From Roseibacterium elongatum DSM 19469 (GTDB lineage Bacteria; Pseudomonadota; Alphaproteobacteria; Rhodobacterales; Rhodobacteraceae): DNA of 64,000 nt. Numbering within the stretch: the stretch's first letter is position 1; the number at the start of each line of letters is the position of its first letter. A program made the translations under genes and the position numbers. A model generated the notes under the pieces. It was not told where the DNA came from, did not search any database, and saw only the letters and a program-made list of their open reading frames with translations. Of the stretch, positions 1,745-24,090 are shown piece by piece. The DNA lies in assembly GCF_000590925.1 (NCBI RefSeq), contig NZ_CP004372.1, positions 3,391,001 to 3,455,000 on the forward strand, read 5' to 3'.

Positions 1745-3625
1745 TTGAGAGCATGTCGTGTCAAAGTCAGCGATTTTCGAGGCGTCAAGGACGCGACGAT
1801 TATGCTTCCCCACCACGCTGTTCTTATTGGCGATAATAATACTGGCAAGACTACACTACTCGAGTCGCTCGACCTGGCGCTGGGTCCAGACAGACTGAAC
1901 CGTACACCGCCAATTGATGAACATGACTTTTATGAGGGCCGATACCTCGCCAAGGCAACTCCTGACACATCGACCGAGGGTGAGGACGTCTCACCTGAGG
2001 GGGGTGACGCTGAGACGGTTGAAGGTGAGCTCGAGAATGTGACGGACGATGCAGCACCGCGCATTGAGATCGAAGTGACGGTGACCGACCTCTCGGAAGA
2101 GCAGAAGGCTCGCTTCGGCGACTTTCTCGAATTCTGGGACTCGACCACCGATGCCTTCTACGACCAGCCTGACCCAGCTGGCGTGGACCCAGCCCATGTC
2201 GCGGAGGCGCTTCGTGTCACTTTCCATGGTTGGTACGACCCCGAAGAGGATGACTTTGAGGGGCGAACATACTTTTCCCGAAGCCTTTCCGAAGGCGGTT
2301 CTCCCGTCCCGTTCAGCAAAAAAGACAAGCAGATATGCGGCTTCTTGTATCTGCGCTCGCTTAGAACGGGTTCACGAGCATTGAGCCTGGAGCGGGGAAG
2401 CCTTCTCGATATCATTCTTCGGCTCAAGGAAGTGCGCCCGCAGATGTGGGAAGACACCTTGGGAACACTCGCTGAGTATTCTGTTGCCGCTGACCCGGCT
2501 CTCGGCATTTCAGGTGTTCTTGAGAGCATCAACAAAGCCCTGAAGAAATACGTCCCCAAGGAATGGGGCGTCGAACCACATCTGAAGGTATCCAATCTGA
2601 CCCGTGACCACCTCCGAAAGGTGATCACGGCGTTTATTGCCACCGGTGAAGGCAAACATGCTGCGCCTTATTTCAGACAGGGAACCGGCACCATCAACAT
2701 GCTCGTTCTGGCCATGCTGTCCCAGATCGCAGCCGATAAGCAGAACGTCATCTTTGCGATGGAGGAGCCGGAAACCGCCATACCGCCCTATGCACAGAAA
2801 AGGATTGTGCACGAAATCCGCAAACTGGCCTCGCAAGCCATCTTCACTTCTCATTCGCCCTACGTGCTTGAGGAGTTTGCGACGGAGGAAACTGTAGTTC
2901 TCGGTCGTGACACGGATGGGGCTCTCTCTCGAAAGCCGATTGTGCTCCCAGATAATGTCAAACTGAAGCGTTACCGGCAGGAATTCCGCACCCGCTTTTG
3001 TGAAGGGTTGTTGGCACGCCGGGTCCTGATCGCCGAAGGCCCGACAGAAGCGTCCGCCTTTCCAGTGGCGTGCCGGAGGCTCGCAGAGATCAATCCTGGC
3101 ACATACAGCTCCCTCGAAGCCTTGGGCATTTGCGTCGTCGATGCCGATGGAGAGAAAAACATCCCGGGCATGGCAAAGCTGTATCGAGAACTCGGAAAAC
3201 GCATTTTCGCTCTATGCGACCAACAAGACGCCGCGAACAAGACCCTGATCGAGGCGGAAGTTGATATCCTACTCATGCATACCGAAAAGGGCTTCGAGGA
3301 TCTTGTGCTGAAAGGCACAAATGAAGATGCGCTCAAGCGCTTCGCCGCTCTTCTCGATTGGCCCGGTCACCTTACCAGCAAGTATCCGGACCCATCCGCC
3401 GACGTTTTCAATGCACTTGCCGATTATTTCTCATGGTCGAAGGGGAATTGGGGCATCGCCGACTTCTTCGCCCAATGCGCAGAGGATGAAATTCCGGAAT
3501 GGGTACGAAATGCCTGTTCTCAACTGAAAACGGCCTGCGACCCAACCCCGCATTTGGATGATGCGGCTGAACCCGTCGGCGAGAGCGATGCTGATCCGGG
3601 GGCGTCTGCGGATGGAGCTGACTGA
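1745..3625 (+). CDS. gajA: Gabija protein GajA: OLD-family ATPase with TOPRIM nuclease domain
   Basis: Protein of 626 aa. The N-terminal ABC/SMC-like ATPase has a Walker A motif GDNNTGKTT (residues 29-37), a signature-like FRQGTGTINML near residue 315 and a Walker B FAMEEPE near residue 340. The TOPRIM domain (about 425-510) shows the metal-binding pattern IAEGPTE followed by CDQQD. This is the layout of overcoming-lysogenization-defect (OLD) nucleases. A UvrD-type helicase gene directly overlapping downstream makes it the GajA subunit of a Gabija anti-phage system, where GajA nicks DNA and is held in check by nucleotides. The start is a TTG with a good ribosome binding site (AAGGAG, seven bases upstream). 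An acidic insert (about residues 70-115) lengthens it beyond the roughly 580 aa of the Bacillus protein. Confidence 0.88.
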   Translation: MRACRVKVSDFRGVKDATIMLPHHAVLIGDNNTGKTTLLESLDLALGPDRLNRTPPIDEHDFYEGRYLAKATPDTSTEGEDVSPEGGDAETVEGELENVTDDAAPRIEIEVTVTDLSEEQKARFGDFLEFWDSTTDAFYDQPDPAGVDPAHVAEALRVTFHGWYDPEEDDFEGRTYFSRSLSEGGSPVPFSKKDKQICGFLYLRSLRTGSRALSLERGSLLDIILRLKEVRPQMWEDTLGTLAEYSVAADPALGISGVLESINKALKKYVPKEWGVEPHLKVSNLTRDHLRKVITAFIATGEGKHAAPYFRQGTGTINMLVLAMLSQIAADKQNVIFAMEEPETAIPPYAQKRIVHEIRKLASQAIFTSHSPYVLEEFATEETVVLGRDTDGALSRKPIVLPDNVKLKRYRQEFRTRFCEGLLARRVLIAEGPTEASAFPVACRRLAEINPGTYSSLEALGICVVDADGEKNIPGMAKLYRELGKRIFALCDQQDAANKTLIEAEVDILLMHTEKGFEDLVLKGTNEDALKRFAALLDWPGHLTSKYPDPSADVFNALADYFSWSKGNWGIADFFAQCAEDEIPEWVRNACSQLKTACDPTPHLDDAAEPVGESDADPGASADGAD

Positions 3626-5432
3626 GAAGCAAATCCAGGTCTTGGATGCTGACGGCCACCTTCTTGTTACCGGAGGGCCGGGGTCCGGCAAGACAACCAT
3701 TTCCATATTCAAGGCCGCTCAGGTTGCCGAGGCTATCCTCCGGCCAGGGCAAAAGGTGCTGTTTCTGAGCTTTGCCAGAGCGACAGTATCTCGGGTCGTG
3801 GAAGCTATCGAATTTGAGCAAAAAATCCCCAAGGAAATCAAACGCCGGATAGACGTTGAGACCTACCATTCCTTCTTTTGGCGCATCCTCAAGGCGCACG
3901 GTTACCTCGCAGGTCTTCCGAGGGACCTCACGATTCTTACGCCTTCCGCCGAAGCGATTGCCCTTTCCGACATTCGCAACAGCCACGGAGCCGACAACAA
4001 ACTGAGCGACCCTCAGAAACAGGCAAAGCGAGCGGCGGAGACGGCTAAAAGATACCGTCTGGCAACTCACGAGGGCCGCGTGTGCTTCGACCTCTTCGCG
4101 CCGTATGTCGGCGATCTGCTGCATGGAAGCCAGACACTGAGGCGGCTTATCGCCACCATGTATCCCGTTATCATCCTTGATGAATTTCAGGATACGAACC
4201 CAGAGCAATGGCGTGTGGTTCAGGCGCTCGGAGCCTTCTGTCGCCTCATTGCACTTGCTGACCCGGAGCAACGCATTTTCGATTTCATCGGGGCCGATCC
4301 GGAACGACTGAATCATTTCCGGTGCACCTTTGCTCCAACCGAGATCGACTTCGGTACCGACAACTATCGAAGTAGCGGTACGGACATCGCCACATTCGCG
4401 AACGACATTCTGAAGGGCACCTTTAGCCAGAGCTCCTACACCGGTATCGATTTTGAGCTTTTCGACCCCTTCCCGGACCCGGCCATGACCAAGCTGATTA
4501 CGACCACCTATGCTGCACGAGGACGACTTGTAGCGTCCGGTAAATCTGATTGGTCCTTGGCTGTGCTGGTGCCGACGAAGAAAATGACCCGTCTCGTGTC
4601 TGACAAGTTTCGGGAACCACCAGCCGGGATGCAGCCCATTGCCCATACCGCTGTCGTTGAACTCGAAGCGGCTATTCTCGGATCAGAGATTATTGCGCAT
4701 TTGATGCTGCCTGACTTGGGCGACGCTCATTTTTCCGAATTCATTGATCTGGTCTGCAACTTCTTTCAGGGGAAAGGCGGTGATCGGCCGACAACCGGCG
4801 CTCTCAAAGAGGCGGCAGCTGTCCGCAGTGCTTATGAAAAGTGGCTTGCGGCACTTGCCGCTGGAAAGAAACCGCATGCGAACAGCATGATACATGCTCT
4901 TGCTTCGGTCTACGAGCAAGCGCGCTCAGTCACGTTGACGGGAGACCCTGATAAGGACTGGCGAGCCGTAAGAGCCACGTTGGAAGCAGGGGCGTGTTCC
5001 CGGCTGAAGGAAATTGGCTTGGAGGTTCGCAATATTCGTCTCTTAGAGCGTGGTGGCCAATTACGTCAGGACCTCACACAGGACTGGCGGAATAACGGTT
5101 CCTATGCAAACGCGCACGCAATCGTTCAGCAGGCTTTTGTCCAAGAGCATTTCGCCACGGGAAGTAAGCCTGAGACTGGTGTGATTGTGATGAACATGCA
5201 CAAGGCCAAGGGAAAGCAATTCGACGAAGTAGTCATCTTCGAGGGCTGGCCGCGCAGGAATAAGGGAAAGATCGTCGCAAATCTTGACCGTATTGTACGC
5301 AACAATGACCGTGACGAAATCAATGACGGATCACGCCAGAATTTCAGGGTAAGCGTCACCAGAGGGCGACAGCGTACAACGATTTTGACACCAAAAGGTG
5401 ACCCGTGTGTACTGCTGCTTCCTGATGAGTAG
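3612..5432 (+). CDS. gajB: Gabija protein GajB: UvrD/PcrA-like SF1 helicase
   Basis: Superfamily 1 helicase-like protein of 606 aa. It has Walker A GGPGSGKTT (residues 21-29), motif II ILDEFQDT near residue 188 and a C-terminal VSVTRGRQRT motif VI. In Gabija, GajB senses or processes DNA ends and works with GajA. The start at 3612 (MELTEKQ) overlaps the gajA stop by 14 bases, indicating translational coupling. An upstream in-frame ATG at 3558 would add 18 residues with no resemblance to helicase N-termini. The protein is longer than the roughly 490 aa of the Bacillus cereus GajB. Confidence 0.86.
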   Translation: MELTEKQIQVLDADGHLLVTGGPGSGKTTISIFKAAQVAEAILRPGQKVLFLSFARATVSRVVEAIEFEQKIPKEIKRRIDVETYHSFFWRILKAHGYLAGLPRDLTILTPSAEAIALSDIRNSHGADNKLSDPQKQAKRAAETAKRYRLATHEGRVCFDLFAPYVGDLLHGSQTLRRLIATMYPVIILDEFQDTNPEQWRVVQALGAFCRLIALADPEQRIFDFIGADPERLNHFRCTFAPTEIDFGTDNYRSSGTDIATFANDILKGTFSQSSYTGIDFELFDPFPDPAMTKLITTTYAARGRLVASGKSDWSLAVLVPTKKMTRLVSDKFREPPAGMQPIAHTAVVELEAAILGSEIIAHLMLPDLGDAHFSEFIDLVCNFFQGKGGDRPTTGALKEAAAVRSAYEKWLAALAAGKKPHANSMIHALASVYEQARSVTLTGDPDKDWRAVRATLEAGACSRLKEIGLEVRNIRLLERGGQLRQDLTQDWRNNGSYANAHAIVQQAFVQEHFATGSKPETGVIVMNMHKAKGKQFDEVVIFEGWPRRNKGKIVANLDRIVRNNDRDEINDGSRQNFRVSVTRGRQRTTILTPKGDPCVLLLPDE

Positions 5433-5965: not shown

Positions 5966-7294
5966 TCATAGCATCAACTCCACCCGGGTCGTCCGCCGCC
6001 CTTCGATGTAATCCTCGAATTCATTGGCGGATTTCAGCCCCTCTGCATGATCATAATGCCGTAGCGTAATGGCCTCGTCCACGTGTCTGAGAAGCGTCTT
6101 CGCGGCGTACGCGCCACCGACCAGATGTTCCGAAGCCTCCGTGGCGACATTGTCGCGCAAACGGTGGATCGGGATACGCACGCCGAACTCCCGCTCGGTC
6201 AGGTTCCCCGTCAAGCGGCCCAGCTGTTTCGACATGATGGCGCCCCGCTTTCCACGGACCGATGGGAAGAGGTGAAGACCGTCGTCGAAGAGCGGACGAT
6301 AGAACGAGCGATAGGCATGCAGCGCCTCTGCGAGCCCGGCATTCTCGAAGACCACGTCATAGCCTTCCCGGGCCTTGCGCGCCTCGGGGTATTTCAGGGC
6401 TTCCCCGGGCAGGACCACATGCAGATACTTGCGGTCGATCAGATTGAGGGTGCGGTCGAATTCGAGCCAGGTGAGCGCCCGGGCACGCTCAGGGAGCGCG
6501 GCCCCTACGGCCAGGATGAGACCGTTGCGAAAGATCGTTGCCGCCCGGACACCCCGGACGGGCCGTGAATGCGCCTCCGCCATCATGCGGAAGCCGAACT
6601 GGTAGAGCATGCTTGCGCCCACGAGCTGACTGCCGGTCTTCGTCGAGGCCCCCTCCGCCCTTGCCCGCTCGCGCCAGTCGGCAACCACGAAACCACAGGC
6701 GGTCGACCGGAATTGCCCACGTGTCGCCACGGGCAACCCGGCGAGGATCCTCTGCAGGTAGTTCGCGGCAGTGCCGGTGCTTGTGGGCAGCCGGTCGGAC
6801 ACCGGTTGAACGAGGCGACAGGCATATCGATGAAGCGCCGATGCGGTAGGAAGCAGAGGAATCCCCTCTGCGGCACAGTAGGTGACCCAACGGCTAAGCG
6901 CAGCGAGAACCGATTTTGTGTAATCAACACTCCAAATCGTCTTTCCGAGAACCGCCTGCCCCTTCTTCGAGACCGTGATCTGCTCGGCAAGTGGCTCCTG
7001 CCACTCGGCCGGCAGAGACGCGATCATCCGCCCAACCGCCTCCCAAGGGCATCGGTCGGGCGGCTTGATCGAAACACGCGCCTCCCTCAACACGCGCGCG
7101 AAGTGCGCGGTCTTCTCGGTGCCCAGGGCATTGGCCGCCATCCGTTGAAGATAGGAGAATTCGGCAAAGGCCGTTACACCGACCTCGTCGATCCGGACGG
7201 CCAAGTGGTCGGTCAACGCCTCGCGCGACGGAGCGGAGTCCAAGGGCGATGCGCCGCGAAGCTTGCGCAGGAGGGCAAGGTGATCGTTCATCAT
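5966..7294 (-). CDS. Tyrosine recombinase (second of a pair)
   Basis: Site-specific recombinase of about 442 aa. The C-terminal half carries the family residues: an Arg in LPERARALTW, the HRLR box (IHRLRDN), and LRHVDEAITLRHYDHAEG with the last His and the presumed nucleophilic Tyr. The N-terminal half is a SAM-like core-binding domain. The start is taken at the ATG-ATG pair at 7294/7291; a longer frame reaching 7498 reads as low-complexity Arg/Pro sequence overlapping the upstream gene and is unlikely. It follows the larger recombinase gene on the same strand after 38 bases. Paired or tripled tyrosine recombinases are typical of Tn554-like and RIT-like elements. Confidence 0.78.
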   Translation of the reverse strand: MMNDHLALLRKLRGASPLDSAPSREALTDHLAVRIDEVGVTAFAEFSYLQRMAANALGTEKTAHFARVLREARVSIKPPDRCPWEAVGRMIASLPAEWQEPLAEQITVSKKGQAVLGKTIWSVDYTKSVLAALSRWVTYCAAEGIPLLPTASALHRYACRLVQPVSDRLPTSTGTAANYLQRILAGLPVATRGQFRSTACGFVVADWRERARAEGASTKTGSQLVGASMLYQFGFRMMAEAHSRPVRGVRAATIFRNGLILAVGAALPERARALTWLEFDRTLNLIDRKYLHVVLPGEALKYPEARKAREGYDVVFENAGLAEALHAYRSFYRPLFDDGLHLFPSVRGKRGAIMSKQLGRLTGNLTEREFGVRIPIHRLRDNVATEASEHLVGGAYAAKTLLRHVDEAITLRHYDHAEGLKSANEFEDYIEGRRTTRVELML

Positions 7295-9361
7295 GTCATG
7301 TCCGAGAATTCGATAGGTTTCCGGACGGCCGCTCACGCACCCGTCTTCGCCTTGGTTTCGAGGTAGGTCTGCCAGCCATCCATGACGAGCGTCTCGTCGA
7401 GCTCGGCATAATATTCGACGGTGGTCTTCAGGCTCTTGTGCCCAAGCAGGCGCTGGACGCGCGGCAGGTTGTCCATGCTTGCCTTGAGCCAGATCCATCC
7501 GATGAGATGTCTGTAGAGATGCGGGTTGATCTGCACCCCGACATGCTGGTGCAACAGGCGCGTGACGCGTTTCAGGATCGCGCGATAAGGCGCGTTGATC
7601 TTGAATTTGCCACCTTCCTGACGCGGAAACAGGTACGGATTCTCTGCATCTTCGGAGTGCAGGAGGATCGGGCGGATCTTGTTGATATAGTTTTCCATCA
7701 ACCGGCTGGCGCGGTCCCCCAGGTGAACGACGTAGTCCGGATCGCCTGCTTTCCGCCCCTTCACCTCTGGCGCGGGGATCGTAAGAACCGCCTTACCATC
7801 CTGGTACGCGATCCAGTCGAGATGTGCCTCAATCACGTTCGAGCTGCGTGGCGCGCGCGTGAGCAGGATGTCATGTGCCAGCACGGCTGCGATATCGCGT
7901 GCCAATTCGACGTCGATGACGTCGAGGCGATCCGGCAGGACGCCCGTCTTCTTCCTGACCGCCTTCCGCCGTCGATCAATCTCGGTGTTGATACCCGTCA
8001 TCACGGTGCCGGACAGGTCGATTGTCGACTGGATGCGGGCTTCGGTGAATTCCCGCAGTTTCTTCTTGTTCTTCGGGGCTATGCCACGACGGCCGGTCTC
8101 GTAAAAGCGGATCAGGGAGCGGATATCCTCGACCTCCTGTTCCGACTTGGCGGCGTAGCCGACGGCGATCTTCTTCATTGCCTTGAGTACGGACACAAGA
8201 TATCCGGTGTCCTTTCGTCCCCCGTTGGCCTCGTAGAGAGCGGCGGCAGCGGCCTGCAAGATATGGTAATCCGTGAGAGCATGCATGCCCGGCACGACTA
8301 TGTCGTGCGACGCTACCAAGGCCTTCGCGAGAGAGATGACGTAGCCGCGGCGAGTCGCGATGGTGTCCTCGGACCAGCGGTAATCGGTGGTAAGGAACCC
8401 GTATTCCCGCATCTTCGACTCGCGGCGCTCCACACGCGCCACCGTTGGGGGATTCCCCCGGCAACCTCGACTTCTCAGCCATGCTCTTCTGAAGCCGAGC
8501 CTTCATCTCGGAAAGCGGATCCGCGTCCCGCTGCTCTTCTCGATCCAGTGCCTCGAGGAAGGCGTCGTAGGTCAGTCCGTCGCGGGAGATCTCTCCCGCC
8601 GCCCAAGGGGCCACTCGGGTGTCAAACTCGGTCAGCAGAGCCTCGAGCATACTCGTGTCGACACCGAATTTGTCGCGCTGATCAGAAAATGGCGACGCCA
8701 CGGCCTTAAACCCGAAATGTGAGGTGCACGGGTGGCTTTCGAGATGGCCAAGAAGCGTGACCACATTGCAGACATGCTTGCGGCATTTTGGTTCCGTCAC
8801 GACTCCGGTCTCAAGCCGATGCGCGTAGTAGTCTGCCAATGTCTTGGTCGTTATCTTTGCAGGTGTGATCCCGCGATCAAATAGATAGACCATGAACGGC
8901 CCGGCCTTCAGTCGGCAGTCCGTCGGGATATCGGAGTCCTTCGCAGCCTTGTAAGCGTCGGCCCAGATGCCGCCGATATCGGCGACACCGCGCGGACGAT
9001 TGCGAACGCCATGTTGATCGATGGCCGCAAGGATATCGCACTTGTACGTCGACCGGCTTCCTTTCGAGAGACCAAGGCTGACCTCATTATGGCGGTGAAA
9101 AAAATCGATAACGTCATGCCGGCAGACCGGTTGGTTTGGATGCCAGTTCGCCTTGCGCATGATCCAACGGACCCGGCTGGCCAAGGTCTTGTGGCCAGCC
9201 CCTTCGAGCTTTGCGACCAATTTGCCAAAGGTCAAAGGTGTCGAACCGACCGCAGCACTGACGAGGTCTCGCCCCGTCGCCCGCGAGAGCGCGGCTGACC
9301 TGAGACCCGTTTCCTCATCCATTTTGAGGTAGAGTCCGTCCCAACGAAGGAGACGGACGGA

Positions 9362-12890: not shown

Positions 12891-13319
12891 TCAAAGGTGT
12901 CGCCGGATCGCTTGCTCAGCTCGCAGGCGGTGCAGGGCATTGTTTCGGGCATGTTCGAAATCCCGCAGCAAGCCCATCAATCGATCAAGCTCTTCCCCTC
13001 TTTCCGTGAGGATCGGCAGATCAATCACATCGCCGACCGCACCGAGTTCCGGATCGTAATGGCCATCGAACACCCGTCTGTGGCCGCGATGTTCTCCTGC
13101 CAATTCGCGGGAGATGATGTCCCTCAGGGCCGCGATCGCGCCGCTGACGCTCTCCCGGAGAAGATCGCCATTTTCGAGGTCGGTGAGGCATCGCAGTGTC
13201 GTTGACCGCTCTGCAGCCGAGCCAGGCGCAGTCAGGCGTACTGCATCGGCAAACAGTCTTACACTTTGATGCGCGGCGGCGGTGATTGTGTCGAGATCTT
13301 GGTCATCGATATGGTGCAC
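12891..13319 (-). CDS. Hypothetical protein (142 aa)
   Basis: Not recognised. A predicted helical, acidic protein with no Cys cluster, signal peptide or membrane segment. The start is a GTG at 13319 with AAAGGGA upstream. It ends about 280 bases before the DUF3987 gene and follows another unknown small gene (13398-13799) after a hairpin terminator. Confidence 0.55.
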   Translation of the reverse strand: MHHIDDQDLDTITAAAHQSVRLFADAVRLTAPGSAAERSTTLRCLTDLENGDLLRESVSGAIAALRDIISRELAGEHRGHRRVFDGHYDPELGAVGDVIDLPILTERGEELDRLMGLLRDFEHARNNALHRLRAEQAIRRHL

Positions 13320-13368
13320 GAAATATCCCTTTCTGTGCTGAGCTGACCCTTCGCCAGCTCGTCAGAAA

Positions 13369-13392
13369 CGGCCCCTGTCGTGGCAGGGGCCG
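13369..13392 (-). terminator. Hairpin terminator
   Basis: A nine-bp stem CGGCCCCTG / CAGGGGCCG with a six-base loop, starting six bases after the stop of the 13398-13799 gene. On the minus strand it is followed by TTTCTG. It separates the two small unknown genes. Confidence 0.6.
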
Positions 13393-13397
13393 AGAAA

Positions 13398-13799
13398 TCA
13401 CGCAGCGATGGAGGCTTGCACGATTTCGTCCGATGTCTTCAAAAACTCGACGAAATCCTCCAAGCGATCCGACATCAAACAGATATCGTGGACTCGCGGG
13501 TCGTCCGGCTCGACAAGGCCGAAGTAACCGCATTCGTCCGGCTCAAGCTGCCCTACCCGCTCGAGACTGAGAAGCGCGAGCAAAGCATTGAGTTCCCTGA
13601 TGCAGGATTTGCTTGAGAGAGTTCCGTCTTTGACCGCTTCACACAGCGCCAATGCGCGGCGTTGCCACCGGTCTCCGCCAAGAGCGGCGGCACATGTCCG
13701 AAGTGCGGACCCGTATTCGTTGAGAAACCGGCGGGTTCGTGCAACAGCATCCGCGTTCGGCGATATGCCATGTGCATTGGTTTTCGGAAATTTTTGCAT
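13398..13799 (-). CDS. Hypothetical protein (133 aa)
   Basis: Not recognised. Soluble, mostly helical by composition, with an acidic middle (LEPDECGYFGLVEPDDPR). The ATG at 13799 (MQKFPKTN) has TTGGAG eight bases upstream, preferred over the in-frame TTG at 13811 that forms part of that site. It may be co-inherited with the 12891-13319 gene. Confidence 0.55.
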   Translation of the reverse strand: MQKFPKTNAHGISPNADAVARTRRFLNEYGSALRTCAAALGGDRWQRRALALCEAVKDGTLSSKSCIRELNALLALLSLERVGQLEPDECGYFGLVEPDDPRVHDICLMSDRLEDFVEFLKTSDEIVQASIAA

Positions 13800-14165
13800 G
13801 TTGATCTCCAAGGAATGCTGCCCGATCGGCAGCGTCAGAAACAGGTTCCCTCCTTTCCGGGTTAGAGGGCTTCACAGGCGAAGACCCTTTCGTTGAGCCC
13901 GCTTCCCTGCTGCGCGCTCTCATCAAGAGGAGCGCGCAGCAGGGAGGCAGGCGAACGCATAGGCGGCATACTTGGGTTCACCGCTTGAGAAGGTGGTAGG
14001 GCCCTTGGAATCCGCCCCGTAAAAATTGAACCGCTGGACACTCGCCTCACACCGCATCGAACCTCTGATCGAGATCACAAGAATTGATCCCACGCAGGTT
14101 TCCGAAGATAAAAGGCGCAAGCAATTCAAACGACTGGCGAAACAGCGCCAAGGAAGAGACGGCAG
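13800..14165. other. Divergent intergenic region upstream of hsdM
   Basis: No convincing gene in these 366 bases. The region holds the strong inverted repeat at 13904-13945 and must contain the promoters for the leftward small gene and the rightward hsd operon. The hsdM ribosome binding site (AAGGAAGAG) is at its right end. Confidence 0.5.
13904..13945. repeat. Perfect 16-bp inverted repeat
   Basis: TCCCTGCTGCGCGCTC (13904-13919) is exactly inverted at 13930-13945 across a ten-base spacer. It lies upstream of both divergent genes, so a terminator role would only make sense for unseen antisense or leader transcripts. An operator for the restriction-modification operon or a relic element end are alternatives. 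Confidence 0.8.
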
Positions 14166-15686
14166 ATGACCATCGAAAAGACGCTTTTTGCAGCCGCCGA
14201 CAAAATGCGCGGGTCCATGGATCCGGGCGAATACAAGCATGTGGCCCTCGGTCTGCTCTTCCTCCGCTACATCGGCGTGGCCTTCCAGCGGAAGTATGAC
14301 GACCTGCTCCCCGAGGGCATGGATGTGGCCGAGGATGTCGATGAATACCTTGCCGAGGGCATCTTCTGGGTGCCCGAGGCCGCGCGCTGGAGCACGCTGG
14401 CCGCGAATGCAAAGGACAAGGGCATCGGGGTCAAGGTCGACAATGCCATGCGGGCGATCGAGGCCGACAACGAGCAACTCAAGGGTGCGCTCCCCAAGGT
14501 CTTCGGACGCGAGGCGCTCGACCCGGCCATCGTCACGGGCCTGATCGACCTTTTCTCGAACATCGAGTTTTCGGGCACGCCAAAGGACTTCGACCTCATC
14601 GGCCGCATCTATGAATATTTCATCTCGGAATTCGCCAGCAGCGAGGGCAAGCGCGGTGGCGATTTTCACACTCCGAAACCGGTGGTCGAACTGATCGTCG
14701 ACATGATCGAGCCGATGAAGGGCCGCCTCTATGAGCCATGCTGCGGCTCCGGCTCCTTCATGGTGCAATCCGAACGCTTTCTCGAAAACCACGCCGGCCG
14801 TCGCGCCGATCTGGCCGTCTACGGGCAGGAGCGGAACCACACGACCTATGGCCTGGCCCGGATGAACCTCGCCATCCGGGGCATCGTCGCGAACATCCAG
14901 TGGAACGCCGAAGGCACCCTGCTGCGCGATGCCTTCCCGGACGAGAAATTCGATTTCGTGATGGCCAATCCGCCGTTCAACATCTCGGACTGGTCCGGTG
15001 ATATCCTGGCCGAGGACCGGCGCTGGAAACACGGCACGCCCCCGGTCGGCAATGCCAACTTCGCCTGGATGCAGCACATCTACGACAAGCTGGGCAGCAC
15101 CGGCATCGCGGGCGTCGTCATGGCCAACGGCTCCATGTCATCGATGTCGAGCGGAGAGGGCGACATTCGCCGCGCCATGGTCGAGGCCGAGGCGGTGGAC
15201 GCCATGATCGCCCTGCCGGGGCAACTCTTCTATGGCACGCAGATCCCGGCCTGCATCTGGATCCTGGCCAAGGACAAGTCGAACGGCGTCGCCAAGGATG
15301 CCAAGCTGCGCGACCGGCGCGGCGAGGTGCTGTTCATCGACGCCCGCAAGATGGGCGCGCTGGTGCCGGGTTCGCGCAAGCAGAAGGAGCTGTCTCGCGA
15401 GGAGATCGCGCGCATTGCCACTGCCTATCACGCCTGGCGTGGAGAGCCGGACGCGGGCGCCTATGCCGACGAGCCCGGCTTCTGCAAGGCGGCCTCCACG
15501 GAGGAGATCTCGAAGCACAACTACGTCCTGACCCCGGGCCGCTATGTCGGCGCCGGCGCGGCCGAGGAGGATGGCGAGCCCTTCGAGGAAAAATTCGACC
15601 GGCTGACGGCGGACCTGCGGGCGCAGTTCGCGGAGGGTCGACGGCTGGAGAATGAGATAGAGGCCCGGCTGGAGAGCTTGGGATGA
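14166..15686 (+). CDS. hsdM: Type I restriction-modification methyltransferase subunit HsdM
   Basis: N6-adenine methyltransferase of 506 aa, the modification subunit of a type I system. The N-terminal HsdM_N bundle is followed by motif I (EPCCGSGSFM, near residue 195) for S-adenosylmethionine and the catalytic motif NPPF (near residue 268). It forms M2S with HsdS, and M2S with HsdR2 makes the restriction complex. The start ATG has AAGGAAG upstream. The stop overlaps the hsdS start as ATGA, giving translational coupling. Length is typical for the family. Confidence 0.95.
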   Translation: MTIEKTLFAAADKMRGSMDPGEYKHVALGLLFLRYIGVAFQRKYDDLLPEGMDVAEDVDEYLAEGIFWVPEAARWSTLAANAKDKGIGVKVDNAMRAIEADNEQLKGALPKVFGREALDPAIVTGLIDLFSNIEFSGTPKDFDLIGRIYEYFISEFASSEGKRGGDFHTPKPVVELIVDMIEPMKGRLYEPCCGSGSFMVQSERFLENHAGRRADLAVYGQERNHTTYGLARMNLAIRGIVANIQWNAEGTLLRDAFPDEKFDFVMANPPFNISDWSGDILAEDRRWKHGTPPVGNANFAWMQHIYDKLGSTGIAGVVMANGSMSSMSSGEGDIRRAMVEAEAVDAMIALPGQLFYGTQIPACIWILAKDKSNGVAKDAKLRDRRGEVLFIDARKMGALVPGSRKQKELSREEIARIATAYHAWRGEPDAGAYADEPGFCKAASTEEISKHNYVLTPGRYVGAGAAEEDGEPFEEKFDRLTADLRAQFAEGRRLENEIEARLESLG

Positions 15687-16993
15687 CCGGCTGGCAGTTG
15701 CGAACCCTGGAAGACATTGTCGACTTCAGCAATGGCCTGAACTTCTCAGAGAAAAACGACGGCGTTGGCCTGAAAATCGTTCGCGTGAAGGACTTCGGGG
15801 ATCGGCATTTCGTCGACTGGACGGAGCTATCAGAAATTAACCCAACGGGGCTGAAGATATCGGAAAAAGTCTATCTGGAGCCAGACGATATTGTCATTGT
15901 CCGGTCCAATGGGAATAAGGACCTCGTCGGGCGTTCGATGATCTACGCAGGACCGGCGAGGACCACGGCATTTGCCGGTTTCTGCATCCGAGCTCGGGTA
16001 AGGAAATCGCAGGCCCTTCCGAAGTTCGTTCATTACTGGTTGAGATCGCCGACGACGCGAGAAAAGCTGAGCCGCGAGGGCGGTGGAACAGGCATTCAGA
16101 ATGTCTCGCAGGGCCTTTTGAAGATGCAGGAGATCGCGCTTCCCCCTTTATCCGAGCAGGAACGGATTTCTGGGACACTGGCTGCCCTCGACGACAAGAT
16201 CGAGCTGAACCGCCGGATGAGCGCGACGCTGGAGGAGATGGCGCGGGCGCTCTATCGGTCCTGGTTCGTGGATTTCGACCCCGTCCACGCCCGCGCCCTC
16301 GGCCAGCCCCCCGTCCACATGGCCCCCACCACCGCCGCCCTCTTCCCCGACAGCTTCGGCCCCGACGGCCTGCCGAAGGGGTGGGAACGTCGGCCATTCT
16401 CCGATCAGGTCGCGATTATCAGCGGTGGCACCCCCAAGACAGGTGTGCCGGAATACTGGGGAGGCGAAATTCCGTGGTATTCGGTCGTCGATGCGCCCGA
16501 AGCCGGAGCGGTCTTCGTTCTTGATACCGAAAAGAAGATCACTGCTGCTGGCTTTGATAGTTGCTCAGCGAAAATGATCTCCGGAGGCACAACCATTATC
16601 AGCGCAAGGGGCACCGTGGGCAAACTGGCGATGGCGGCAGGCGACATGGTTTTCAACCAGTCTTGCTATGGCTTGCAGGCGACCCGTCAGCACACGGGTG
16701 AGTTCGTCTATTTCTCCGCTGTTCGCGCGGTGGACATCCTGCAATCTATGTCTCATGGGTCGGTCTTTTCCACAATTACGCGAAAGACCTTCGACGGTCT
16801 CGAGATTGTCTATGCGCCAGATCCCGTTATCAAAGCGTTCGCCGGGCAAGCCAGTGTAATGCTTGAGCGAATTCTTGGCGCTCAACGAGAGAGCCAGACC
16901 CTCGCCGCCCTCCGCGACACCCTTCTCCCCCGCCTCATGTCCGGAGACCTCCGCATCCGCGAGGCCGAGAAGCAGGTCGAGGAAGTCCTATGA
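15683..16993 (+). CDS. hsdS: Type I restriction-modification specificity subunit HsdS
   Basis: Specificity subunit of 436 aa with two target-recognition domains (about residues 1-150 and 235-390). They are separated by the conserved spacer SEQERISGTLAALDDKIELN...LYRSWFVDFDPVH, and a second copy of the spacer (AALRDTLLPRLMSGDLRI) closes the protein. The two domains set the bipartite recognition sequence, which cannot be read from sequence alone. Overlaps hsdM and the next gene by four bases each. Confidence 0.94.
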   Translation: MTGWQLRTLEDIVDFSNGLNFSEKNDGVGLKIVRVKDFGDRHFVDWTELSEINPTGLKISEKVYLEPDDIVIVRSNGNKDLVGRSMIYAGPARTTAFAGFCIRARVRKSQALPKFVHYWLRSPTTREKLSREGGGTGIQNVSQGLLKMQEIALPPLSEQERISGTLAALDDKIELNRRMSATLEEMARALYRSWFVDFDPVHARALGQPPVHMAPTTAALFPDSFGPDGLPKGWERRPFSDQVAIISGGTPKTGVPEYWGGEIPWYSVVDAPEAGAVFVLDTEKKITAAGFDSCSAKMISGGTTIISARGTVGKLAMAAGDMVFNQSCYGLQATRQHTGEFVYFSAVRAVDILQSMSHGSVFSTITRKTFDGLEIVYAPDPVIKAFAGQASVMLERILGAQRESQTLAALRDTLLPRLMSGDLRIREAEKQVEEVL

Positions 16994-17436
16994 GCGAGCC
17001 TGCGGCCGACTGGCTTTTGACGGAAGAGGATCTGGGCTTGCTCCAACTTGTTCGAGACGAGATCTGGTCGTGGCGATCGGTCTGTCGTGGTCCCGAACAC
17101 CTGCTTGCCTTGGGTGCGATCGTTTCTGGTGTAGATGCGCTTTTGGCCGGGAAAACGCCAGACGCCGCAGCGACGGTTTCGTTCAATCATGTCGCCAGCG
17201 GAGAGAACAGATCGACCGCGATCTCTTTGAACGAGGATACCTTGGCGCTTTCCCATTCCGCCCAGTTTTATAGCCCAGCCGCTGGTGGCGATAGCGAAAG
17301 TCACGTCGACGCTCTCTTCGACCAGAACGGTCGATGCAGCGAGGTTGGCGTTGCCGATTGGTTGAATCTTTGTGCTGAATTGCGCCCACTGGCCAATGAA
17401 CTTGAGGTTGAAATTCACACGTTTCCTGAAGTGTAA
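16990..17436 (+). CDS. Hypothetical protein embedded in the type I R-M operon
   Basis: A 148-aa acidic protein not recognised as any family. It begins MSEPAADWLLTEEDLGLL, is rich in Asp/Glu and Ala, and has no membrane segment or metal-binding cluster. Its start overlaps the hsdS stop as ATGA and the next gene begins eight bases after its stop, so it is clearly part of the operon. Small and acidic, it could be a regulator, an inhibitor of the nuclease, or a DNA mimic; none of these is shown. Confidence 0.7.
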   Translation: MSEPAADWLLTEEDLGLLQLVRDEIWSWRSVCRGPEHLLALGAIVSGVDALLAGKTPDAAATVSFNHVASGENRSTAISLNEDTLALSHSAQFYSPAAGGDSESHVDALFDQNGRCSEVGVADWLNLCAELRPLANELEVEIHTFPEV

Positions 17437-17444
17437 GGCTCTCC

Positions 17445-18598
17445 ATGTTCCAGATTGACCGTTCCGCCAACCGCCTGCGCAAGCTCGAGCGCACCAGCTT
17501 CTCCGAGGTCGGGTTCCGAGAGCGGGAGCATCTTCAGGAATGGCTTGCCACCATGCCGGACGCCCTCTGCGAGGCGATGAGCGAGGGTGAGGACGGCCTT
17601 CTGATCATCCAGAAGGAGTTCGACGGGTTCGATGGCACCCGGGAGCGGCTGGACCTGCTGGCGCTGGACCGGACCGGGCAGCTTGTCATCATCGAGAACA
17701 AGCTGGACGATTCCGGCCGGGATGTCGTCTGGCAGGCCCTGAAATACGCCGCCTATTGCTCGAGTCTGAAGAAGGCTGAGATCGTCGGCATCTTCCAGAA
17801 GTATCTCGACCGCCAAGGCGGCGGAGACGCAGCCGGGCTGATCTGCGAGTTCCTTGGTGAGGACACGCTGGACGAGGTCGTCCTGAACGACGGCACCAAC
17901 CAGCGCGTCGTCTTCATCGCGGCAAATTTCCGGCGTGAGGTGACGGCGACGGTGCTCTGGCTGCGCGAGCACCAGATCGACGCGCGCTGTGTGAAGGTCG
18001 TGCCCTACCGGTTCGGCGAGGAGATCTTCGTCGACCTCCAACAGGTGATCCCGACGCCGGAGGCGGCCGATTACATGATCCGGATGGCTCAAAAAGAGAG
18101 TGAAGAAAGATCAGCCAGCACCGCACAAGGTCATCGGCACAAGGTCAGGCTCGCATTCTGGCAACAGGCCTTGGAAAAACTCCGAGAAGACGGATCATCA
18201 AGGCATCAGAATGTCAGCCCCACTAAGGAGAATTGGCTGAGTGTCGGAACTGGCGTTTCGGGCTGTTCTTACACCTTGGTGCTGTTGAAGAGCCAAGTGC
18301 GCGTGGAGGTCACCATCCAGAGAGCGAGCGCCGCAGAAAACAAATGGATCTTCGATCAGTTGTTTGCACAGCGAGAAGTGATTGAGCACGAGTTCGGCGA
18401 AAAGCTCGATTGGCATCGCAATGACGATCAGAAGCGATGCCTGATCAACTTGTCGCAGCCCTGGGATGGCTTCGACTCTGAGAACTGGCCTGACATGATC
18501 TCTTGGATGAGTGGTCGAGTCAGGCGCCTTGAAGCCGCGTTCGCAGAACCTTTGACGCAATTGAACCAACGCCTGAAGGCAGGCGAGGCAACGATATA

Positions 18599-18599
<1 letters not shown>
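17445..18599 (+). CDS. PD-(D/E)xK nuclease-like protein with DUF4268 C-terminus
   Basis: A 384-aa protein. The N-terminal 180 residues resemble DUF91/NucS-like restriction nuclease folds: RLDLLALD followed by [10 protein letters not shown] gives the D...ExK active-site pattern near residues 65-87. The C-terminal part (about 220-380) resembles DUF4268, a domain common beside R-M and other defence genes. It lies inside the hsd operon, before hsdR, and its TAA overlaps the hsdR ATG by one base. It is not a standard type I subunit. An accessory nuclease or a second defence function riding in the operon is inferred. Confidence 0.75.
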
Positions 18600-21691
<3,092 letters not shown>

Positions 21692-21918
21692 GTGATTTGG
21701 GCTGCGCATACTTAGCGGCGTGACTGTTTCACGGAGCACAACTCGGTCGTTCTCACCGGATTTCGTGGTCTTAGGACCACTTGAGGGCAGTGTGACGTAT
21801 TTCCAACAGACTCGCCGGACGCGCTATTTCTCGAGCATCGATCGATGCGCCGCGGTCGTTGCCGAGTGATTGGCCTTGGACTCGTGCGAGCTCGTCGCGG
21901 ACCAAGCCGAATCTGTCA

Positions 21919-22530
21919 TGACCCCTCATGGGGGGATGTTGCATGTTCAGCACGGCCGAAGCCGCGACTGTCCTGACCCCTCATGGGGGATGTTGCATGT
22001 TCAGCACGGCCAAAGCCGCGACTGTCATGACCCCTCATGGGGGATGTTGCATGTTCAGCACGGCCAAAGCCGCGACTGTCCTGACCCCTCATGGGGGATT
22101 TAGCATGTTCAGAACGGCCAAAGCCGCATCTGTCATGACCCCTCATGGGGGATGTAGCATGTTCAGAACGGCCAAAGCCGCGACTGTCCTGACCCCTCAT
22201 GGGGGAAGTAGCATGTTCAGAACGGCCGAAGCCGCATCTGTCGTGACCCCTCATGGGGGAAGTAGCATGTTCAGAACGGCCGAAGCCGCATCTGTCATGA
22301 CCCCTCAAGGGGGATTTTGCATGTTCAGAACGGCCGAAGCCGCATCTGTCGTGACCCCTCAAGGGGGATTTTGCATGTTCAGAACGGCCGAAGCCGCATC
22401 TGTCGTGACCCCTCATGGGGGATTTTGCATGTTCAGCACGGCCGAAGCCGCATCTGTCGTGACCCCTCATGGGGGATTTTGCATGTTCAGAACGGCCGAA
22501 GCCGCATCTGTCATGACCCCTCAAGGGGGT
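21919..22530. repeat. Array of twelve 54-bp tandem repeats
   Basis: Units begin with TGACCCCTCA at 21919, 21974, 22028, 22082, 22136, 22190, 22244, 22298, 22352, 22406, 22460 and 22514. Spacing is 54 bases except the first (55), and the last unit is cut after its first hairpin. A degenerate half unit precedes the array at about 21897-21917. Each unit holds two possible hairpins: CCCC-TCAT-GGGG and CGGC-CGAA-GCCG. The loops vary (TCAT/TCAA, CGAA/CAAA) but the stems do not. A GTTC-A-GAAC palindrome is present in the later units, GTTCAGCAC in the earlier ones. The array begins 228 bases after hsdR. Both strands are open in one frame because 54 is a multiple of three. Confidence 0.95.
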
Positions 22531-22754
22531 AAGCGAAGCACGAGCGGTTTGATGCGATGCAGATCTGCGAAACATCTTGGCTCGTTGGCCCCGCTACAGG
22601 AGAGATGGTTCTCTTCGAACATTCCCAAAATCGAAAAGCCGAAAAAAGTGAAAAAAATGTCCCGCCGCGGATACCTTTGATGTCCTGCCCTCCGCATGAC
22701 GTCGCCAGTTCCCTGAATGGTACCAGCGCGAACATGCATGGCCTGCATGCATTT
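22531..22754. other. Non-coding stretch after the repeat array
   Basis: No gene is supported here. It joins the repeat array to the degraded insertion-sequence scraps. An AAAA-rich stretch lies at about 22619-22660. Confidence 0.4.
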
Positions 22755-22964
22755 AGCCACCTCGACACGGCCTTCCACCGCGCCGGGAACAATCTCGATC
22801 CGCTCCATCGGAATTGCGGCCTCCGGGAAAGCCGTCGCCCGCTTGCGTCGCACAAAACCAACCGCGCCTTCACATCATCCGGCGAACGCCGCCGACAGTC
22901 CTCGTAGATCACCAATCCCAGTGACCTGAGCAACTACGTCATCGTCTCCATAGAGAGAATCCAT
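22755..22964 (-). pseudogene. IS66-family TnpA remnant
   Basis: Degraded minus-strand coding sequence in shifting frames: MDSLYGDDDVVAQVTG, then CRRRSPDDVKARLVL, then IPMERIEIVPGAVEGRVEV. These resemble the beginning, the RRRWPxxVKARIV segment and the end of IS66-type TnpA proteins, with the middle missing. Identification is from family memory, so moderate confidence. Confidence 0.45.
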
Positions 22965-24015: not shown

Positions 24016-24090
24016 TGGTGCCCGGGGGCGGAATCGAACCACCGACACGAGGATTTTCAATCCACTGCTCTACCCCTGAGCTACCCGGGC
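24016..24090 (-). tRNA. tRNA-Phe (GAA)
   Basis: The cloverleaf is complete on the minus strand: acceptor GCCCGGG pairs with CCCGGGC, D arm GCTCAGGGGTAGAGC, anticodon loop TTGAAAA with anticodon GAA, T loop GGTTCGATTCC, and an encoded CCA. Its 3' end (24016) faces the accessory island, making it the likely integration target. Confidence 0.97.

What the first reader, a model, noticed from the sequence alone, without database searches (positions are those of the whole stretch)
21897..22530. Twelve-copy 54-bp array with conserved stems and variable loops
Units are contiguous with no spacers. Each can form two short hairpins, CCCC-TCAT-GGGG and CGGC-CGAA-GCCG. Across copies the loops change (TCAT/TCAA, CGAA/CAAA), as do the linker and the base before TGACC, while both stems stay intact. 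That pattern fits selection on structure (an RNA, or a binding-site array) more than on protein. It follows hsdR by 228 bases inside a defence island. The nature of the array is unknown.
Basis: partly seen in the sequence, partly recalled or inferred. Interest (0 to 1): 0.7.

Follow-up and report, generated by a model that had tools for sequence, protein, structure and literature searches.

The report
Noncoding 54-base repeat in mobile island
A 54-base DNA unit repeated twelve times head to tail in a bacterium's mobile island is real and shared with one related species, but it is most likely an ordinary noncoding minisatellite, because the case that its hairpins are preserved by selection is weak.

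Summary
The array is real: period 54, 11.6 copies, the only tandem array reported in the window. A homologous 14-unit array lies in one other species of the same genus (G003). No other array turned up in the genomes searched.

It is not a protein: in G003, 8 of 13 spacings are 55 bp, so the frame shifts repeatedly. In G003, 3 of 14 units have a broken second stem; the two stems show no compensatory change; stem columns are not significantly quieter than other columns (p = 0.08 window, 0.18 both genomes); two such hairpins arise in 9% of shuffled units.

The array lies about 1.5 kb from a tRNA-Phe gene whose 3' end is repeated 27.9 kb away beside an integrase gene. In G003 it stands upstream of a two-gene module that the window also carries.

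Interior units are better conserved between species than synonymous sites of that module, so constraint, or recent exchange, is not excluded. Best reading: a noncoding minisatellite carried on mobile DNA.

The parts
21897..22529 (+). tandem array: 54-bp units (first spacing 55), 12 copies of hairpin CCCC-TCAW-GGGG and 11 of CGGC-CRAA-GCCG; left-end copy degenerate
22530..22649 (.). near right flank, 112 of 120 aligned columns identical in G003 and joined to the array at the same base in both genomes; opens with a large imperfect inverted repeat
22650..22784 (.). far right flank, identity to G003 falling from 34/40 to 28/40
13398..13799 (-). gene1 of a two-gene module (133 aa, unknown function), homologue lies just beyond the array flank in G003
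12891..13319 (-). gene2 of the module (142 aa, unknown function)
13897..13952 (.). inverted repeat (23-nt arms, 91% complementary) at the edge of the shared module; possible rearrangement point (inference)
14166..21691 (+). type I restriction-modification operon (hsdM, hsdS, a 148-aa ORF, a DUF4268/PDC-S11 gene, hsdR); it lies between the module and the array in the window only
24016..24090 (-). tRNA-Phe; its last 48 bases are repeated exactly 27.9 kb away (G000:C1:3387135-3387182)

Best explanation
A noncoding minisatellite (variable-number tandem repeat) carried on mobile DNA. A 54-bp stretch that happened to hold two short palindromes was duplicated in tandem, probably helped by hairpin formation and slippage, and the array then grew, shrank and was partly homogenised by recombination between units. 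It moved between species of one genus with its right flank and probably with a two-gene module. Shown: the repeat, its homologue, frame loss, copy-number difference (12 against 14 first-stem copies), degenerate end units, block repeats within the G003 array, different chromosomal settings. Inferred: slippage and recombination as the drivers, and the absence of a selected function.
For: Head-to-tail identical-length units without spacers. Homologous array with a different copy number and 54/55 mixture through G-run length changes. Identical or near-identical units recur at a distance in G003 (rows 3 = 6, 2 = 9, 1 and 10 two apart), as after block duplication. End units are the degenerate ones. 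No compensatory change in the two stems. No Rfam family matched there. Found in 2 of 195 relatives by blastn and as an array in 2 of 190 by covariance model. The setting is mobile: tRNA 3'-end repeat plus integrase gene, IS scraps beside it, module and flank 85-89% identical against 79% for a core stretch, and a different neighbourhood in G003.
Against: Interior units are more alike between the species than a neutral array should be if it diverged as much as the module's synonymous sites (dS 0.29 and 0.20): 40 of 49 columns are invariant in 23 units, 4 polymorphisms are shared, none is fixed. Simulated neutral arrays match this jointly in 0 of 5600 runs at divergence 0.20-0.29 and 1 of 2800 at the near-flank value of 0.067 (two degenerate G003 end units dropped). 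With all 25 units it is 0 of 4200 and 30 of 2100. So a fully neutral array fits only if its divergence was about 0.03, or if sequence was exchanged between the lineages. The near flank is also conserved (112 of 120).
Confidence: 0.58

Rival explanations
1. A selected cis-acting hairpin array. Array plus near flank form one functional noncoding element of the mobile DNA: an RNA or single-stranded-DNA binding array, a transcription insulator, or a control region. Several units are kept because multiple copies are needed.
For: Low divergence of units and near flank against synonymous sites; conserved array-flank junction in both genomes; first stem intact in 25 of 25 aligned units; on the minus strand the second hairpin loop is UUCG (that cUUCGg is an unusually stable tetraloop is recalled); near flank folds well on the minus strand in G003 (z = -3.6) but less in the window (z = -1.8); four terminator-like hits on the + strand against 1.1 expected (sd 1.6).
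Against: Second stem broken in 3 of 14 units of the homologue, no compensation; terminator-like tails in only 4 of 12 copies; no sigma-70-type promoter match in 21600-22900; none of the 25 loci fetched for the module gene shows such an array except G003 itself, nor do 12 wider stretches; rarity.
Confidence: 0.3
2. Recent exchange: the array DNA itself was transferred or gene-converted between the two lineages after their modules had diverged, which explains the alike units without constraint.
For: Some units are identical over 50 columns between genomes (window units 6 and 9 with G003 unit 4) although gene1 and gene2 differ by dS 0.20-0.29; identity falls with distance from the array, 38/40 to 28/40.
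Against: No donor or intermediate found. The falling identity fits constraint equally well.
Confidence: 0.09
3. Protein repeat: the 18-residue repeat is translated.
For: Open frames of 250 aa (+) and 219 aa (-) run through the window array. hmmscan of the 250-aa ORF gives two Pfam names above their cut-offs (PF23795, PF08132), though with no stretch that passes on its own, which is typical of summed weak repeats.
Against: In G003 8 of 13 spacings are 55 bp and no frame stays open through the array. In the open frames most distinct changes are nonsynonymous: 9 of 10 in the MFRTAEAA frame, 7 of 10 in the open minus frame.
Confidence: 0.03

Closest known systems
Bacterial noncoding VNTR (minisatellite) in a genomic island, e.g. 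the octanucleotide VNTR upstream of clbR in the E. coli colibactin island (PMC7364221, passages seen)
   Same: Noncoding head-to-tail array in a genomic island with copy number that differs between genomes.
   Different: The clbR unit is 8 bp, strain variation is documented, and the array is in the 5' untranslated region with a measured effect on transcription. Here the unit is 54 bp, only two genomes are known and no effect has been measured.
REP / REPIN palindromic repeats (definition recalled)
   Same: Short palindromic, hairpin-forming intergenic units.
   Different: REPs are dispersed over a genome and linked to a RAYT transposase; here the unit is confined to one locus in the window's genome.
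Iteron arrays and other replication or partition control regions of mobile elements (recalled)
   Same: Direct repeats in a mobile element, next to an A-rich stretch in the flank.
   Different: Iterons are usually near 20 bp (recalled). The DUF3987 proteins of the two islands show no meaningful similarity (E = 0.31), so no shared initiator is apparent.
CRISPR arrays
   Same: Tandem repeats with short palindromes in a region rich in defence genes.
   Different: No spacers: units are contiguous.

Membership tests
Noncoding VNTR / minisatellite | head-to-tail copies of a 10-100 bp unit | tested here: met
   period 54, 11.6 copies; period 55, 13.9 copies in G003
Noncoding VNTR / minisatellite | no conserved reading frame | tested here: met
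   8 of 13 spacings are 55 bp in G003; mostly nonsynonymous changes
Noncoding VNTR / minisatellite | copy number differs between related genomes | tested here: met
   12 against 14 first-stem copies, two genomes only
Noncoding VNTR / minisatellite | copy number differs between strains of one species | not testable with these tools
   one genome per species is held
REP / REPIN | unit dispersed at many sites of the genome | tested here: not met
   only the array locus in the own genome by blastn and by covariance model, 12 matches, all in the array
REP / REPIN | RAYT transposase in the genome | not tested
   no whole-genome search for this family was made
CRISPR array | unique spacers between repeats | tested here: not met
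   units contiguous
Structured RNA family | match to a described RNA family | tested here: not met
   Rfam at gathering cut-offs gives only two tRNAs in the window
Structured RNA family | compensatory base changes in the stems | tested here: not met
   0 of 8 pairs; the sequences are few and close, so power is low
Replication or partition repeat array | cognate initiator or partition protein shared by both elements | tested here: inconclusive
   only the DUF3987 proteins were compared: no meaningful similarity
Repeat protein gene | frame kept in homologues | tested here: not met

The most novel reading that the evidence does not exclude
The array and its near flank are one selected noncoding element of a mobile module: a multi-copy hairpin platform, read as RNA (with UUCG loops on the minus strand) or as single-stranded DNA, that binds a module or host factor and is maintained with its ancestral unit variants in two species.
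Probability: 0.25. Interest if true: 0.55.

Novelty: new member of a known kind. Interest (0 to 1): 0.28.

Why it matters
As an ordinary minisatellite it matters little beyond being a possible strain-typing marker and an example of how identical stems across tandem copies can look like selection when they are one inherited unit. If the unit conservation does reflect function, it would be an undescribed hairpin array on a mobile element, and two genomes with shared ancestral unit variants already give a starting point for a test.

Tried and rejected
Protein repeat: rejected on frame loss in the homologue and on mostly nonsynonymous changes.

Known RNA family: none at Rfam gathering cut-offs.

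Wider homologues: no match in plasmids or phages. Two viral-contig patterns gave none; a 16-base pattern gave 15 contigs, whose covariance-model scores stay at or below 20.5 bits and show no array. The strict 38-base pattern in genome contigs gave one record, NZ_JAHVKE010000001.1. Blastn found the array in 2 of 195 relatives. With array plus flank, 2 of 394 family genomes matched, one being the own genome and the other (G074) only 40 bases of the far flank; G003 is not among the matches there, so it was presumably not drawn.

Covariance-model matches: 20 of 190 genomes matched at E <= 0.01. Apart from G000 and G003 these are 18 genomes with scores of 26.5 bits or less. I ran the model again on 11 of those 18 loci, one match each, and looked at the sequence of 11 of 18, which read by eye as coding DNA. 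The other loci were not examined closely.

Link of array to the module gene: 22 of 190 relatives have gene1 homologues, G000 and G003 included. Tandem repeats within 1.5 kb of 25 fetched loci: the array only in the G003 locus, otherwise short runs of under 3 copies. In 12 wider stretches of other genomes, runs of 3.7 copies or fewer. The right flank against 20 such loci: four scored above the best of 40 shuffles of one locus (25-28 against 24), too weak to use.

Replication-region reading: the DUF3987 proteins are not alike. Flank ORF: no plasmid match, no Pfam match.

Literature: five searches gave listings in which I saw nothing that describes this array; one paper was read in passages only.

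Full report
Observation. Tandem Repeats Finder gives 21904-22529, period 54, 11.6 copies, 94% matches, and no other array in the window at its default score. There are 12 copies of the CCCC/GGGG hairpin, 11 full copies of CGGC/GCCG, one spacing of 55, and a degenerate copy at the left end. In the 11 units aligned from the window the variable columns are 11, 18, 26, 27, 33 and 44 of columns 1-49, plus the linker, none in a stem.

A homologue exists. Of 195 relatives searched by blastn, two match: the window's own genome and G003, same genus. A strict pattern finds the same array in NZ_JAHVKE010000001.1, labelled Maritalea mobilis DP3N28-3, a contig of the same length as G003's contig 1. The covariance model built from the 25 units gives scores of 42-85 bits only in these two genomes of 190; 18 others have matches of 26.5 bits or less (11 of those 18 loci rechecked, one match each). 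Array plus flank in 394 family genomes gives the own genome and a 40-base flank match in G074.

Not a protein. The G003 array has 14 units, and 8 of its 13 spacings are 55 bp because of longer runs of G or an added A, so each frame breaks. In the window the long open frames follow from the unit being a multiple of three; 9 of 10 distinct changes in the MFRTAEAA frame and 7 of 10 in the open minus frame are nonsynonymous. Two Pfam names rise above their cut-offs for the 250-aa ORF with no stretch passing alone; I read this as weak scores summed over repeats.

Structure. Within the window no stem column varies, but 0 of 16 against 6 of 33 is not significant (p = 0.079), and with both genomes it is 3 of 16 against 12 of 33 (p = 0.18). 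Two G003 units carry an A-C at one pair of the second stem, and the right-end unit has two G-G oppositions. The first stem holds in all 25 units; there is no compensatory change in the 8 pairs. An outward extension of the second stem is unpaired at one position in 14 of 23 distinct rows. Two such hairpins arise in 9.2% of shuffles. Single units fold with z from -0.10 to -2.45. Four-unit pieces fold with z -3.0 and -4.5, which counts the same hairpins several times.

Setting. tRNA-Phe lies at 24016-24090, and its last 48 bases recur exactly at G000:C1:3387135-3387182, 27.9 kb away. A gene with Phage_integrase and Arm-DNA-bind_3 domains stands 0.3 kb inside that repeat. This fits an integrative island, though genes matching thiamine-biosynthesis families lie beside the integrase gene, so the boundary is not proven. 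G+C is 0.54-0.63 up to 24000 and 0.69 just beyond. Between array and tRNA are transposase scraps and a weak AlpA-like ORF below Pfam's cut-off. In G003 the array lies about 4.4 kb from a tRNA-Asn gene, with an integrase-like ORF between them.

The module. Window 12777-13943 matches L020 10252-11415 at 88.7%. It holds two small genes of unknown function. In G003 the order on one strand is: an ORF that I read by eye as an integrase fragment (no Pfam match), array, flank, gene1, gene2. In the window the module and the array face each other across the restriction-modification operon, and one of them is inverted relative to G003. An inverted repeat at 13897-13952 sits at the module edge. That an inversion or insertion split the module there is inference. 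Gene1 homologues occur in 22 of 190 relatives, but no such array was seen near them except in G003. A core stretch next to tRNA-Phe is 79% identical between the two genomes, below the module and the flank (85-89%), which suggests transfer.

Rate of change. Gene1 has dS 0.287 and dN 0.069; gene2 0.201 and 0.079. The near flank is identical at 112 of 120 columns, then 34/40, 32/40 and 28/40. Leaving out the two degenerate G003 end units, 40 of 49 unit columns are invariant, 4 polymorphisms are shared and none is fixed. I simulated neutral arrays that start from the shared polymorphisms, with random unit replacement. The joint pattern was reached in 66 of 2800 runs at divergence 0.03, 1 of 2800 at 0.067 and 0 of 8400 at 0.12-0.29. 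With all 25 units and ends exempt from replacement (34 invariant, 5 shared, 0 fixed) it was 421 of 2100, 30 of 2100, 2 of 2100 (0.12) and 0 of 4200. An earlier run that asked for invariant columns alone was easier to satisfy: 34 of 60 at 0.067 with the highest replacement rate. So units changed more slowly than synonymous sites, perhaps as slowly as or slower than the near flank. Constraint and exchange both explain this. The decay of end units, in contrast, is what homogenisation of an unconstrained array gives.

Conclusion. The simplest account is a noncoding minisatellite on mobile DNA, 0.58. A selected hairpin array is the main rival, 0.30.

Noticed in passing
window 1745-5432: A Gabija defence pair: GajA (best model E = 3.4e-268) and GajB (E = 5.8e-232).
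   Followed up: partly
window 17445-18599: A DUF4268 gene matching the candidate defence family PDC-S11 (E = 2e-165) sits between hsdS and hsdR, after a 148-aa ORF without a family.
   Followed up: no
window 12891-13799 (-); L061; L052; L062: A two-gene pair of unknown function, with gene1 homologues in 22 of 190 relatives and several tandem gene1 paralogues in G017, often beside integrase or DUF3987 genes where I looked.
   Followed up: partly
G000:C1:3387135-3387182 and window 24016-24063: Exact 48-base repeat of the tRNA-Phe 3' end, 27.9 kb apart; G001, G002 and G004 also hold displaced copies of 47-51 bases, so tRNA-Phe looks like a recurrent integration site in this genus.
   Followed up: partly
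L004 (NZ_JAHVKE010000001.1): The record is labelled Maritalea mobilis, which NCBI places in Devosiaceae, yet it is held in the same genus as the window; plasmid relatives of the module are Thioclava and Paracoccus. The label may be wrong.
   Followed up: no
window 5966-7498 (-), 7976-9322 (-): Two long ORFs without Pfam or PADLOC matches in the island; the first has a translated resemblance to a stretch of G003 near the array (L020 15773-16772, 46% over 269 aa in one tblastx piece).
   Followed up: no
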